A model generated the notes under the pieces. It searched no databases and was not told the origin of the DNA. It saw only the letters and a list, made by a program, of their open reading frames with translations. A program made the position numbers and the translations under genes. Positions 54,651 through 60,555 of a stretch of DNA of 64,000 nucleotides are shown here, piece after piece; within the stretch, counting starts at the first letter, position 1; each line of letters opens with the position of its first letter. Source of the DNA: Bdellovibrio bacteriovorus (GTDB lineage Bacteria > Bdellovibrionota > Bdellovibrionia > Bdellovibrionales > Bdellovibrionaceae); the NCBI RefSeq assembly GCF_001592755.1, contig NZ_LUKF01000012.1, positions 124,001 to 188,000 on the forward strand, written 5' to 3'.

Positions 54651-54682
54651 AAGGAAGAGCTATAAGCTCTTCCTTTTTTTTT
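54651..54682 (+). terminator. Intrinsic terminator of the chemoreceptor
   Basis: Perfect 11-base stem aaggaagagct / agctcttcctt with a three-base loop and a T-run. Confidence 0.93.
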
Positions 54683-54750
54683 ATTCTCCATCATGAGCCC
54701 TCACCATGCTACCTATCGTCCTTTGGGTAGCGGATCTCGTGGACGCGCTC

Positions 54751-54808: not shown

Positions 54809-55057
54809 ATGAAGACGTGGATGGTTCTTTGTCTTTGTTCGATTCTTAGCGGATGTTCTTTGGAAGCTCAAATCGATGACCTCGGTTTGAACAAAGACTC
54901 TGTCGTGCAGGCCAAGAAACGCATTCATCCAGACTTCATTTCGGCGGAAGTCGTTTCACTTTCCTCGGGTTACCGAGTGACGGCGACTTTTGGTGAAATC
55001 ACTGAAAACAAAGTGACTAGTAATGGTTGGAAAGTGCGTGGAGTTTTCTATGAATAG
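54809..55057 (+). CDS. Small lipoprotein preceding the fibre gene
   Basis: 82 residues from the ATG at 54809 (tggag upstream). The lipobox LSGC is at about residues 11-14 after MVLCLCSI. The mature part is about 68 residues (SLEAQIDDLGLNKDSVVQA ... GWKVRGVFYE), predicted beta-rich at its end. Its stop overlaps the start of the 1370-residue fibre gene by eight bases, so they are translated together. It might help export or anchor the fibre; no homologue recognised. Confidence 0.7.
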   Translation: MKTWMVLCLCSILSGCSLEAQIDDLGLNKDSVVQAKKRIHPDFISAEVVSLSSGYRVTATFGEITENKVTSNGWKVRGVFYE

Positions 55058-58000
55058 ATTGAGCTTGTCCGTACTTGTTATGCTTTTGTTTGTTGGCTCG
55101 TACGTGAATGCACAAAATAAAGGAATTAGTTTTCAGGGTGTTTTTCAAGACCCCAACGGCGATTTTCCAACGGCTTCGGGGCTGACGGTGCGCTTGCAAA
55201 TTTTAGATCCCGTCGCAGACTGTGTTCTAAGAGAAGAGGTGCACTCGGCGGTGGACGTTACAAATGGTTACATGAATCTTGTCATTGGCTCTAGCAGCGC
55301 CTTGGTTCCTGCGGCAAGCAATCCATCGCCCATTCCGAGTTTTCAAAAAGTCATGGATAATTCAGCGCCGCTGATCGGTTTTAATTGTAGCTACGTACCT
55401 CAAGCTCATCATGAACGCAAAATTCGAATCATCACCAATATGCCTCGTTTAGCGGGAGGCTTTGACGCCGTGACCGCTGATTTTAATATGCGCGCGGTGG
55501 CCTTCGCGATGAATTCTGAGATGCTGAATGGAAAGAAAGAAGAAGATTTTCTGCAAGTGAACCCGGCCCTGGGAGCGACTCAAAATCATCTTGAGCAACT
55601 ATTGAACCGGTATTCTCAATTAGATGCTATTTTGAATGGAAACTACGTTGGTAATGCCGCAACGGCGACAACGGCGTTGACGGCAAATTCCGCAACCACC
55701 GCCACTTCTGCGACCACTGCCGCGACGGCCGCTACAGCCAATGCCCTCAGAGGATTCAATGTAGCCACGACAACGCCAACGGCTGGGCAGGTCTTAACTT
55801 GGAATGCGGGTTCCTCTTCGTGGGAACCTTCTACCTCCACAGGACTGGTGTCCTCTGTCGCCGGCAGAACTGGAGATGTGACTTTATCAGCTAGTGATGT
55901 CTCTGGACTGGATACTTTTGTGGATGGCCGGGTGACTTTGCAAAAAGGAGTGGCTAGCGGACTTGCACCTTTGAATTCTTCAAGCAAAGTTTCGTCTTCA
56001 TTTTTAGGAACGGGTACCGCGGACGCTTCGACATACTTGCGAGGCGACGGAACATGGTCGACGATCTCCTCTTCTGATGCGACGAAACTTCCGCTAGCAG
56101 GCGGGACCATGACGGGTGATATCACGATGGCCTCTGGCGCGGATTTATTGGTGGGAGGAAATTCCCTTCAGAATGTCGGATATCTGACGATGAACCCTTC
56201 AAGGTCTCTGCATCTTTCAAACAACGCAACAGATCCTGCGGGCCTGACTTTAAGTGATGCGGGGAAGATGTGGTATGACTCTTCGAACAATGTCATTAAA
56301 TTTTGGGACGGAAGTGCCATTCGTACCTTGGGTGTTGCAGGTGCGGGCTTGCAATCTTTAAATGGACTTAATTCTCCGACTCAAACTTTCGGTGTGGTGA
56401 ATACAGGTTCCGACTTTGCTATTAGTTCAACTGGAAGCACACATTCTTTTCAACTTCCGACAGCCTCAGCCACGGCGCGTGGAGCTTTGAGTTCTTCAGA
56501 CTGGTCGGCATTTAGTAGCAAACTGGGTCCATCGACATCTTTTTCAGGGGATGTCTCTGGAACTTATAACAACTTGACTCTTGCGACCGTTCCAATTTCC
56601 AAAGGAGGAACAGGTCAAACAATCAAAGCAAATGCATTTAATGCTCTGAGCCCGCTGACAACAAAAGGGGATTTGGTTGTTCACAACGGGGCGAACAATG
56701 TTCGACTTCCTGCGGGTTCTAATATGACTTATCTGCGCGCCAATAGCGCTGTCGCCGAAGGTGTTGAATGGACCAGCTCCATTTCTGCGTCGGAAATTTC
56801 TTCCCTTGTGAGCACGGGAATCGTGCAAAGAAATGGCGCGGGAAATTATAGCACGGTGACCGTGAATGCTCCTTTGTCTTACGCGGGAGGAGTCTTGGCG
56901 GTCGCAACCGGCACCAGTTCGACGACGGTCGCAGCAGGAAATGATTCCCGTATTGTTGGTGCTCTTCAAAAATCCGGTGACACCATGACAGGTGATCTTA
57001 CGATGGACTCGGGTGCTGATCTAATGCTCGGTGGAAATTCCATTCAGAATGTAGGATATGTTACGATGAATCCTTCTCGGTCTTTGCATCTTTCAAATAA
57101 CTCAACGGATCCGACGGGACTGATACTAAGTGATGCAGGAAAGATGTGGTATGACTCTACCAACAACGTCATCAAATTTTGGGACGGCGGTGCGATTCGG
57201 ACTTTAGGTGTCGTGGGCAGTGGTCTTAGTACATCCACTTCCTTCGCCGGCGATGTTTCCGGGACTTATAACAACTTAGTCCTAGCAACGGTGCCGATAT
57301 CTAAGGGTGGAACGGGACAGACGACCAAAACAAATTCCTTCAATGCGCTTAGCCCACTGACGACAAAGGGAGATTTAGTTATTCACAACGGAACGAACAG
57401 TGTTCGACTTCCCGCGGGCGCTAATATGACTTATTTGCGCGCAAATAGTGCCGCCGCAGAGGGGGTTGAGTGGGCAAGCTCAATCTCTGCTTCGGAAATA
57501 TCTTCTCTTGCAAGTACGGGCATCGTGCAAAGAAACGGGGCAGGGAACTACAGTACGGTGACGGTCAATGCACCTTTAAGTTATACGGGAGGCATTTTAG
57601 GCGTCACGACGGGAACAAGTTCAACCACGGTGGCTGCCGGAAATGATTCCCGCATCGTAGGAGCTCTTCAAAAATCAGGCGACACTTTGACTGGAACTTT
57701 AAACGCGCTAGATGTTAATATCGCCAATACTAGATATCTGAAACTTCCAGAAAGCAGCGATGGAAGTGTCGCGGGCCAGCTTTGGTACAATGCGGGAGAT
57801 ATAAAATATTTCGACGGCACGACGACAAAAACTTTGAAAGTCGTAGGAACCACCCCTGTAGATCAGGGAGGCACTGGAGTCACGTCTTTGAACTCAGGAA
57901 GTCTGTTGCTAGGAAATGGGATCAATCCCGTAACAACGTTAAATCCTGTGGCGGGGAATATTGTCTACGCGACGGGGACGACGACATGGCTCAGTGGTTC

Positions 58001-59162
58001 ACCAGATACAGCCAACCTTGTTACTAAGTCCTTAAATCAAACAATAACGGGTCTAAAAACTTTTACGACCTTTATGAATACTAAGGATATTCGTTACTTT
58101 GATTCTGATTCAAGTCACTACGTCGGACTGAAGGCGCCCAACACTGTCTTAAACAGTTTCACACTTTCTTTGCCGGCAACAGCGGGCTCTTTAGGGCAGG
58201 CTCTCACCCATGATGGTGCTGGCGGGCTGACATGGAGCAACCTCCCTGCTTCGTCAGGACCTGCTGGAGGCACAGGTCGTATTCAGTACAATAACGGCGG
58301 CAGCTTTGGAGGTACGAATCTGTACACAGATGGATTTAAGATTTCTTTGAATTCGTCAGAAATGAAAGATTATTTTTACGTCGAGGTGCAGCACGGAATG
58401 CAATATAATTCGTCTGGCGCTGGCGTTATTCCCCAATATGAAAATAGCTTCTTTCGAGTCAATAATACTTCTCCTTCTGACAACCGGGCGGCGCTCCATA
58501 CTTTTGGTGTTACCAATACAGCAACAACGTCACAAAATGCTTATTTCGGAGCGGTGTCGACACCAACCGGGCACTCTCCAGCCATCGTGATAGGACAACA
58601 AAATGGCAGCTCATCCTATGAAGAACGCTTTCGCATTGATGCTTCCGGCAATGTGGGAATTGGCACGGTCAATCCCACTTATAAACTCGTCGTCAACGGA
58701 GATATAAATTTGCTGGGAGGCGCTTCAGCACTGCGATTTGCGGGAACAGGCGTCTGCACCAGCACGGGATGCACAAGCTCGTCCGATCAAAGATTAAAAG
58801 AAAAGATTGAACCTCTATCTGATTCTCTTTTCAAGATACTGCAAATTCAGGGCGTACAATATGAATACATCGACAAAGAGAAATTCGGAAGCCGCCGTCA
58901 TATCGGGGTCCTGGCACAAGACGTGGAAAAGGTTTTCCCCGAGACGGTCGTTACTGATGAAAAAAGTGGTTTAAAGTCTGTGGCGTACGATCATCTTGTC
59001 GCGCCTATCATCGAAGCGATTAAATCTTTATACGTTGAACAGGAAGTTCAAAGAAAAGAACTAACCTTGCTGCAAAAGCAAAATATCGATTTGAAAACGG
59101 AGAACTCGGCCATCAAGTTGTATTTATGTCAGAAAGATCCCGAGGCTCCATTTTGTAATTAA
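55050..59162 (+). CDS. Tail-fibre-like surface adhesin with S74 chaperone domain (MAT-like)
   Basis: 1370 residues from the ATG at 55050 (ggag upstream), with a signal peptide of about 21 residues (ending VNA). An N-terminal beta domain (KGISFQGVFQDPNGDFP) of about 200 residues is followed by an Ala/Thr-rich region, then phage-tail-fibre-type repeats with SGDVSGTYNN, ISKGGTGQT and GDTMTGDLTM motifs. The C-terminal S74 intramolecular chaperone begins about residue 1244 (SSDQRLKEKIEPL ... RRHIGVLAQDVEKVFPETV) and ends in a coiled coil. S74 domains trimerise fibres and may cleave themselves off. In Bdellovibrio such chimeric trimeric fibres act in prey recognition; that role here is inferred from architecture. 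Confidence 0.85.
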   Translation: MNRLSLSVLVMLLFVGSYVNAQNKGISFQGVFQDPNGDFPTASGLTVRLQILDPVADCVLREEVHSAVDVTNGYMNLVIGSSSALVPAASNPSPIPSFQKVMDNSAPLIGFNCSYVPQAHHERKIRIITNMPRLAGGFDAVTADFNMRAVAFAMNSEMLNGKKEEDFLQVNPALGATQNHLEQLLNRYSQLDAILNGNYVGNAATATTALTANSATTATSATTAATAATANALRGFNVATTTPTAGQVLTWNAGSSSWEPSTSTGLVSSVAGRTGDVTLSASDVSGLDTFVDGRVTLQKGVASGLAPLNSSSKVSSSFLGTGTADASTYLRGDGTWSTISSSDATKLPLAGGTMTGDITMASGADLLVGGNSLQNVGYLTMNPSRSLHLSNNATDPAGLTLSDAGKMWYDSSNNVIKFWDGSAIRTLGVAGAGLQSLNGLNSPTQTFGVVNTGSDFAISSTGSTHSFQLPTASATARGALSSSDWSAFSSKLGPSTSFSGDVSGTYNNLTLATVPISKGGTGQTIKANAFNALSPLTTKGDLVVHNGANNVRLPAGSNMTYLRANSAVAEGVEWTSSISASEISSLVSTGIVQRNGAGNYSTVTVNAPLSYAGGVLAVATGTSSTTVAAGNDSRIVGALQKSGDTMTGDLTMDSGADLMLGGNSIQNVGYVTMNPSRSLHLSNNSTDPTGLILSDAGKMWYDSTNNVIKFWDGGAIRTLGVVGSGLSTSTSFAGDVSGTYNNLVLATVPISKGGTGQTTKTNSFNALSPLTTKGDLVIHNGTNSVRLPAGANMTYLRANSAAAEGVEWASSISASEISSLASTGIVQRNGAGNYSTVTVNAPLSYTGGILGVTTGTSSTTVAAGNDSRIVGALQKSGDTLTGTLNALDVNIANTRYLKLPESSDGSVAGQLWYNAGDIKYFDGTTTKTLKVVGTTPVDQGGTGVTSLNSGSLLLGNGINPVTTLNPVAGNIVYATGTTTWLSGSPDTANLVTKSLNQTITGLKTFTTFMNTKDIRYFDSDSSHYVGLKAPNTVLNSFTLSLPATAGSLGQALTHDGAGGLTWSNLPASSGPAGGTGRIQYNNGGSFGGTNLYTDGFKISLNSSEMKDYFYVEVQHGMQYNSSGAGVIPQYENSFFRVNNTSPSDNRAALHTFGVTNTATTSQNAYFGAVSTPTGHSPAIVIGQQNGSSSYEERFRIDASGNVGIGTVNPTYKLVVNGDINLLGGASALRFAGTGVCTSTGCTSSSDQRLKEKIEPLSDSLFKILQIQGVQYEYIDKEKFGSRRHIGVLAQDVEKVFPETVVTDEKSGLKSVAYDHLVAPIIEAIKSLYVEQEVQRKELTLLQKQNIDLKTENSAIKLYLCQKDPEAPFCN
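56106..57690 (+). repeat. Compound internal duplication inside the fibre gene
   Basis: Two different modules are each present twice. Module A (TMTGD ... DGSAIRTLG) is at about 56106-56347 and 56982-57223. Module B (SFSGDVSGTYNN ... IVGALQKSGDT) is at about 56534-56981 and 57236-57690. Protein copies are nearly identical while codons often differ, so the duplication is not very recent or has been kept by selection at protein level. Confidence 0.85.
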
Positions 59163-59784: not shown

Positions 59785-60555
59785 ATGAACCAAAAGCAGC
59801 TTTATCCTGAAGTGGCCTCTTTTCTAAAAATGAAAATCGAAGAGCTTCGCAGTCAGCGCAAGCGACCGCTCAGTCTTCGTGCTTTGAGCGTAAAGTGCGG
59901 CATTCCATCGGGAAGATTCACGGATCTTTTGCATGGCCGTCGTCCTTTAAGTGAATTCTATGCAGAGAAGCTTTGCGTAGGATTAAAACTCAATCCTCCT
60001 GAACAACAAAAACTTAATTCCTTAGTGACGACGGCGTCCCGTAAAGAAACTCGTCGTACCTTGAACGAAAATGAATTAGCGGTCATGTCGGGGTGGGAGA
60101 ATTTCGCTATTTTAAGTCTGCTAAAAACGAAAGACATCTTTGTAAAACCAGAACAGATTGCCGAACGATTGGGAATCACGGTCGAGCGCACTCAGCAGTG
60201 TCTGGATGTTCTTAAAAGTTTGAATATGATTTTGGATCATGCGGGGTTCTTTGAAAGAACAGCGTCGCATCTGACGACGACGTTTGGTATTCCAAGTGAA
60301 GCTATTAAAAACGCCCATGAAGCGGTGTTGATGAAGTCTTCGCAAGTTCTTCGCGCGACCACTCCAGAACAGCGATATTACTCTTCCATCACTTTTCCTT
60401 TCGATATGAATAATTTGGGTGAGGCGAAAAAGATGATTGATGAATTTAGAAAAAAATTTTCGCGTCGAATGGAATTAGGAAAACGAAAAGAAGTCTTTAA
60501 TTTAAGTATTCAATTCTTCCCTTACACGGAATTAAAAGGACCTTCTCATGAATAA
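59785..60555 (+). CDS. TIGR02147-type regulatory protein
   Basis: 256 residues without signal peptide. The N-terminal part LSLRALSVKCGIPSGRFTDLLHGRRPLSEFYAEKL is helix-turn-helix-like, followed by WENFAILSLLKTKDIF, a winged-helix-like segment (KPEQIAERLGITVERTQQCLDVLKSL) and a C-terminal part with RYYSSITFPFDMNNL. This order is characteristic of the TIGR02147/DUF4423 family common in Bdellovibrionota and Fibrobacteres. The gene overlaps the next secreted-protein gene by eight bases, which suggests the secreted protein is its partner or target. Confidence 0.8.
   Translation: MNQKQLYPEVASFLKMKIEELRSQRKRPLSLRALSVKCGIPSGRFTDLLHGRRPLSEFYAEKLCVGLKLNPPEQQKLNSLVTTASRKETRRTLNENELAVMSGWENFAILSLLKTKDIFVKPEQIAERLGITVERTQQCLDVLKSLNMILDHAGFFERTASHLTTTFGIPSEAIKNAHEAVLMKSSQVLRATTPEQRYYSSITFPFDMNNLGEAKKMIDEFRKKFSRRMELGKRKEVFNLSIQFFPYTELKGPSHE

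What the first reader, a model, noticed from the sequence alone, without database searches (positions are those of the whole stretch)
55050..59162. Giant MAT-like fibre with an S74 self-chaperone
Signal peptide, phage-fibre-type repeats and a C-terminal S74 domain in one 1370-residue secreted protein match the chimeric trimeric fibres reported for Bdellovibrio prey recognition. It is not in a prophage: no other phage genes are nearby, and it has its own Sec signal. The tip-determining region between the repeats and S74 (about 58260-58770) would be the place to look for ligand specificity.
Basis: partly seen in the sequence, partly recalled or inferred. Interest (0 to 1): 0.65.

Follow-up and report, generated by a model that had tools for sequence, protein, structure and literature searches.

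The report
Prey-binding fibre with coupled lipoprotein gene
This is one of about 21 phage-derived surface fibres that a predatory Bdellovibrio is thought to use to grip its prey; the fibre is of a known family, but its gene overlaps a small, apparently undescribed lipoprotein gene that travels with such fibres across the genus and may encode the piece that holds the fibre on the cell.

Summary
A 1370-aa ORF (55050-59162) has a signal peptide, repeats and a C-terminal S74 chaperone/protease domain with the SDxxxK motif (SDQRLK, S1245). The MAT reading is supported: NCBI's curated MAT N-domain model scores 100.1 bits (cut-off 60). The genome holds 21 MATs, 14 with S74; an HD100-sized genome gives 21 and 13, the published HD100 figures. 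It is not prophage, and not unusually large for a MAT.

(1) The gene directly upstream (54809-55057) encodes an 82-aa lipoprotein whose last codons overlap the fibre's start codon. Its family lies directly before MAT genes in 32 of 56 held-out cases (chance about 1%). In the fibre's own N-domain subclass, which includes the glycan-binding Bd2439, 20 of 23 junctions have the fibre ATG at the same place, eight bases before the end of the lipoprotein gene. The MAT paper's main text names no surface partner for the N-domain; this lipoprotein is a candidate (inferred). (2) A sister species' orthologue lacks exactly one 292-aa shaft unit while keeping base and tip.

The fibre is a new member of a known family; the lipoprotein-fibre cassette is the new variant.

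The parts
54651..54683 (+). Terminator-like hairpin plus T-run after the upstream chemoreceptor gene; separates it from the lipoprotein-fibre pair
   Evidence: 11-pair stem followed by a T-run; such patterns also occur by chance (8 found, 5.9 expected)
54809..55057 (+). Small lipoprotein gene (82 aa, lipobox LSGC, mature end ...GWKVRGVFYE); MAT-associated lipoprotein
   Evidence: ORF and sequence; family A1 with invariant Cys; found directly before MAT genes in other genomes; no Pfam, PDB or NCBIfam family
55040..55043 (+). GGAG, likely ribosome-binding site of the fibre gene, inside the lipoprotein's last codons
   Evidence: sequence; a G-rich site at the same place in the sister junctions
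55050..55057 (+). 8-base overlap ATGAATAG: fibre start codon and lipoprotein stop codon
   Evidence: ATG at -8 in 20 of 23 deduplicated subclass-II junctions
55050..59162 (+). S74-type MAT fibre gene (1370 aa)
55050..55112 (+). Signal peptide, aa 1-21 (by eye)
   Evidence: sequence; homologues carry the same element before the N-domain
55113..55562 (+). Conserved MAT N-domain (subclass II), aa 22-171; predicted beta-rich domain followed by a helix
   Evidence: NF053851 hit aa 11-171, 100.1 bits; model pLDDT 75.5; no confident PDB or viral fold match
55644..58259 (+). Shaft: repeat-rich region, aa 199-1070, with GGTG and GDVSG motifs
   Evidence: sequence and repeat comparison
56106..56981 (+). 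Shaft repeat unit 1 (aa 353-644)
   Evidence: 77-82% DNA identity to unit 2 over its repeated parts
56982..57695 (+). Shaft repeat unit 2 (aa 645-882)
56286..57161 (+). 876-bp stretch (292 aa) exactly missing from the orthologue in sister genome G003
58260..58781 (+). Predicted tip, aa 1071-1244, between the shaft and S74
   Evidence: only the sister species carries it whole (95%); two weak partial matches elsewhere in the genus
58653..58688 (+). Capping-loop-like motif VGIGTVNPTYKL, aa 1202-1213
   Evidence: resembles the published V-G-..-P-X-X-X-L motif; profile match to Bd3182 tip 8OJN
58782..58949 (+). Peptidase_S74 / intramolecular chaperone domain, aa 1245-1300; catalytic-type S1245 and K1250 (SDQRLK); predicted self-cleavage at S1245
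   Evidence: cleavage position by analogy with Bd3182 S782

Best explanation
A two-gene cassette for one prey-handling surface fibre. The fibre is exported by Sec, trimerises along its length, and its C-terminal S74 chaperone cuts itself off at S1245 once the trimer is correctly folded, exposing the tip (aa 1071-1244) to bind a prey-surface ligand, probably a glycan. The conserved N-domain sits at the predator's outer membrane. The lipoprotein, probably made from the same message and translationally coupled to the fibre, most likely anchors or docks that N-domain at the outer membrane. Shown by sequence: membership in the MAT family, the S74 motif, the overlapping lipoprotein gene and its conservation. 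Inferred from Bd3182 and Bd2439: trimer, self-cleavage, surface display, prey binding. Inferred here: the lipoprotein's role. Split confidence: MAT member 0.97; lipoprotein and fibre a functional unit 0.8; lipoprotein as anchor 0.4.
For: MAT N-domain model 100.1 bits, cut-off 60. S74 domain (profile matches MyRF ICA 5e-22, phage tail fibres, and published MAT structures 8OJN, 8OND, 8OL4). 21 MATs and 14 S74 genes in this genome; the HD100-sized genome gives 21 and 13, as published. The lipoprotein family was found with a profile made from 14 rows; of 56 held-out family genes 32 have a MAT directly downstream. Subclass-II junctions carry the fibre ATG at -8 in 20 of 23. The same pairing occurs in other genera of the family: 5 of 7 loci. 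The Bd2439 gene, identified by its match to PDB 8OL4 (2.7e-176), has the lipoprotein and the same overlap. Lipoprotein and N-domain distances correlate, r 0.83, 0 of 10000 permutations.
Against: No binding, localisation or trimer data for this protein. Most MATs of this genome have no such lipoprotein next door, so it cannot be a universal anchor unless one serves several fibres. Some strong family members are orphans (6 of 16 held-out strong hits). The r of 0.83 is also expected from linkage and shared descent. Part of the lipoprotein's conserved C-terminus may be conserved because the DNA there carries the fibre's ribosome-binding site and start codon. The lipoprotein model is of low confidence (pLDDT 49).
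Confidence: 0.6

Rival explanations
1. The lipoprotein is an assembly or export factor (a pilotin- or chaperone-like partner for moving the fibre across the outer membrane), not a lasting anchor.
For: The overlap would give matched local synthesis, as with dedicated chaperones; small size and lipobox fit a pilotin-like protein; the paper's main text has a single mention of the outer membrane and none of lipoproteins or operons.
Against: Most MATs lack an adjacent copy; no similarity to any Pfam family or PDB chain.
Confidence: 0.25
2. The lipoprotein is only a translational leader or a hitch-hiking neighbour; its conserved end is fixed by the overlapping fibre start signals.
For: The codons for GVFYE plus stop carry the ribosome-binding site and ATG of the fibre.
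Against: Conservation extends to the lipobox, the EVVTT strand and the FGEI motif, away from the overlap; relatives before subclass-I fibres keep the architecture without the same overlap; the pairing holds across genera.
Confidence: 0.2
3. It is a prophage tail fibre.
For: S74 end and shaft match phage tail-fibre families.
Against: Signal peptide; MAT N-domain, absent from viral contigs in the subclass tested; no phage structural genes among ten neighbours; same gene order in the sister genome.
Confidence: 0.01
4. The fibre serves attachment to surfaces or sister cells (biofilm, host-independent growth) rather than prey.
For: No ligand is known for this tip; single MAT deletions mostly show no or a small predation defect (PMC10769870).
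Against: All C-terminally tagged MATs tested in HD100 were seen on attack-phase cells and one MAT tip binds prey glycans.
Confidence: 0.1

Closest known systems
MAT (mosaic adhesive trimer) family, S74 subgroup, e.g. Bd3182 of B. bacteriovorus HD100 (PMC10769870; PDB 8OJN, 8ONB, 8ONC)
   Same: Signal peptide, N-domain, repeat shaft, tip, capping-loop-like motif, S74 with SDxxxK
   Different: Divergent N-domain subclass (100 bits against 235.6 for a typical paralogue of this genome); own tip sequence; 1370 against 922 aa; overlapping lipoprotein gene
Bd2439 (MAT, TNF-like tip, binds GlcNAc and Proteus mirabilis LPS; PDB 8OL4)
   Same: Same N-domain subclass (about 46% identical to the window N-domain), same upstream lipoprotein with the same 8-base overlap
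   Different: Bd2439 ends in a TNF-like tip without S74; the window fibre ends in its own tip plus S74
Phage S74 tail fibres/endosialidases and the MyRF ICA domain
   Same: S74/ICA chaperone-protease domain at the C-terminus
   Different: No MAT N-domain found in the viral collection; phage fibres attach to a virion, MATs to a cell

Membership tests
MAT family | Conserved beta-rich N-domain of about 130 aa right after the signal peptide | tested here: met
   NF053851 100.1 bits, cut-off 60, aa 11-171; homologous to 15 other N-domains of the genome; beta-rich model
MAT family | N-terminal signal peptide | tested here: met
   Read from the sequence; no prediction program run
MAT family (S74 subgroup) | C-terminal S74 domain with SDxxxK | tested here: met
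   PF13884 63.9 bits, cut-off 22; SDQRLK at 1245-1250
MAT family | Capping-loop motif near the tip end | tested here: met
   VGIGTVNPTYKL at 1202-1213; profile of this region matches 8OJN, 8OND, 8OL4
MAT family | Trimeric intertwined fibre | not testable with these tools
   Only single chains can be predicted
MAT family | Display on the attack-phase predator and relocation during invasion | not testable with these tools
   Needs microscopy
S74 / intramolecular chaperone family | Self-cleavage at the serine | not testable with these tools
   Catalytic motif intact; among MATs shown for Bd3182
Prophage tail fibre | Flanking phage structural genes | tested here: not met
   Ten neighbours: only a LysR-type regulator and a chemoreceptor match PHROGs, both families of unknown phage function
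Bacterial lipoprotein (54809-55057) | Lipobox with invariant cysteine after a short hydrophobic stretch | tested here: met
   LSGC; Cys invariant in 14 of 14 rows
Bacterial lipoprotein (54809-55057) | Binds the MAT N-domain (proposed here) | not testable with these tools
   No complex prediction was possible

The most novel reading that the evidence does not exclude
A dedicated small outer-membrane lipoprotein, translationally coupled to the fibre, is the missing surface partner of the MAT N-domain for one MAT subclass, so that base and anchor are inherited as a unit while shaft length and tip are exchanged.
Probability: 0.4. Interest if true: 0.75.

Novelty: new variant of a known kind. Interest (0 to 1): 0.5.

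Why it matters
How MAT fibres are held on the predator is stated as open in the paper that discovered them. A conserved lipoprotein gene overlapping the fibre gene, including in front of Bd2439, the MAT with a known prey ligand, gives a concrete, easily tested candidate. The one-unit difference in shaft length between sister species suggests that reach and specificity of prey fibres can evolve separately.

Tried and rejected
Prophage origin: rejected. Tip variation by a diversity-generating retroelement (some subclass-II fibres end in FGE-sulfatase domains, which from my own knowledge have a C-type-lectin-like fold): no reverse transcriptase match in six of seven genomes searched and a single match, not examined, in the seventh. 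Diversifying selection on the tip: not seen; between sister species the tip has 26 synonymous and 8 replacement codon changes. Structure of the lipoprotein: too uncertain to use. Fold neighbours of the N-domain: only weak matches, E above 0.01. Single-sequence search of PDB: nothing useful except a weak S74 hit; the profile search was needed.

Full report
What is there. The ORF 55050-59162 encodes 1370 aa. It carries a signal peptide, an N-domain, a repeat-rich shaft and a C-terminal S74 domain. Pfam places Peptidase_S74 at aa 1245-1300 (63.9 bits), starting exactly at the SDQRLK motif. The published MAT motif is SDxxxK. The start at 55050 is preferred over the mechanical start at 55023, because of the GGAG at 55040 and the conserved overlap described below.

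Is it a MAT? The MAT paper (PMC10769870) defines the family in B. bacteriovorus HD100: 21 proteins, 13 with S74, all with a conserved domain of about 130 aa after the signal peptide. NCBIfam now holds a model of that domain (NF053851). The window protein scores 100.1 bits against a cut-off of 60; a typical paralogue scores 235.6. The window genome has 21 N-domain matches and 14 S74 matches. Genome G001 has 21 and 13. Its single contig is 3,782,950 bases long, which from my own knowledge is the length of HD100; and one of its proteins matches the solved tip of Bd2439 (8OL4, 2.7e-176). So the census reproduces the published figures. A profile of S74 ends matches MyRF ICA, phage fibres and published MAT structures. 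Membership is therefore tested and met; trimer, self-cleavage and display are inferred from Bd3182 and others.

Not a prophage. Ten neighbouring genes show no phage structural family. The subclass-II N-domain has no relative among viral contigs, while the S74 end has at least 439. The chimeric picture of the MAT paper, a bacterial base and a phage-type end, fits.

An N-domain subclass. The window N-domain belongs to a divergent subclass ('II' here: HKGI.FQ...CVLREE). At E below 1e-20 it occurs in 13 of 24 genomes of the genus, and Bd2439 belongs to it. Its best single-chain model is a beta-rich domain with a C-terminal helix (pLDDT 75.5). It has no confident match among solved or viral structures, in line with the paper's remark that the MAT N-domain has no structural homologue.

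The overlapping lipoprotein gene. Directly upstream lies an 82-aa ORF (54809-55057) with a lipobox (LSGC). Its stop codon overlaps the fibre's start (ATGAATAG). In loci fetched for other subclass-II fibres the same arrangement recurs. A profile from 14 such proteins (A1) was searched through 24 genomes of the genus and the wider family. Counting only genes not used to build the profile, 32 of 56 have a MAT gene directly downstream (11 subclass II, 21 subclass I); about 1% would be a generous chance figure. Many of the 24 others are orthologues at one conserved place, and some of these lie just behind an S74 MAT rather than before one. In other genera of the family 5 of 7 family genes precede a MAT. 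At subclass-II junctions the fibre's ATG lies at -8 in 20 of 23 deduplicated cases, with a G-rich ribosome-binding site in front. Of 33 deduplicated subclass-II fibres, 21 have the lipoprotein directly upstream and one more has it nearby. The family has no Pfam, PDB or NCBIfam match. The word 'lipoprotein' does not occur in the main text of the MAT paper, and the two later papers that use the family's full name were not read in full. Supplementary files could not be read, so prior mention there is not excluded.

Interpretation. The paper states that the N-domain should bind a surface element still to be identified. A lipoprotein made in step with the fibre is a natural candidate. This is inference: no complex could be predicted, the single-chain model is poor, the distance correlation of 0.83 is also what linkage and common descent give, and most MATs of this genome have no such neighbour.

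Shaft length. In sister genome G003 the locus is in the same order, with flanks 94-98% identical. The orthologue has 1078 aa and lacks aa 413-704 exactly, 876 bp, between two diverged repeats. The repeats differ by 18-23%, far more than the orthologues (about 1-7%), so the long form is probably the older one and G003 lost a unit. The longest exact match between copies is 18 bases, which makes a short-read assembly collapse unlikely but not excluded. Tip and S74 are conserved (95% aa in the tip; 1.1% nt difference in S74). The tip as a whole is found only in these two genomes of the 24.

Tip exchange. Subclass-II fibres with the lipoprotein end variously in S74, a TNF-like tip (Bd2439) or FGE-sulfatase-like domains. 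Base and lipoprotein stay, tips change.

Verdict. The fibre by itself is a new member of a known kind. The lipoprotein-fibre cassette and the whole-unit length change are the parts worth following.

Noticed in passing
window 59785-60555; L011 1134-1952; L013 1231-2040: Three of the genome's ten DUF4423-type regulator genes lie beside a MAT gene; at the window and L011 places a secreted-protein gene follows. Similar regulators stand beside MATs in L081, L085 and L086.
   Followed up: partly
L082 2590-5958 (Bd2439 gene): PDB residue numbering implies that Bd2439 is annotated from a TTG six codons after the conserved ATG that overlaps the lipoprotein gene; the true start is probably the ATG.
   Followed up: partly
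L103-L105, L107, L109, L111, L135, L138-L142, L145, L147, L148, L151, L152, L154, L156, L157; L013 10036-10326: A second lipoprotein group (GLVSGSTQTGT...YKVYSSVQGAIVSN), about one per genome, in most cases before a conserved 'VVDVRRNITL' gene and in several genomes just behind an S74 MAT; in the window's and two other genomes a further MAT follows it instead.
   Followed up: partly
L086 3016-13596; L085 2167-9750: Subclass-II fibres of 3,526 and 2,527 aa, each with the overlapping lipoprotein gene.
   Followed up: no
L072 2868-11260: One lipoprotein followed by two overlapping tandem subclass-II fibre genes, both with FGE-sulfatase-like tips.
   Followed up: no
L015 1457-4887: Another S74 MAT of the window's genome is preceded by an overlapping 187-aa lipoprotein with a similar C-terminal end (GGGFKIRGRITQ) that the profile does not reach.
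   Followed up: no
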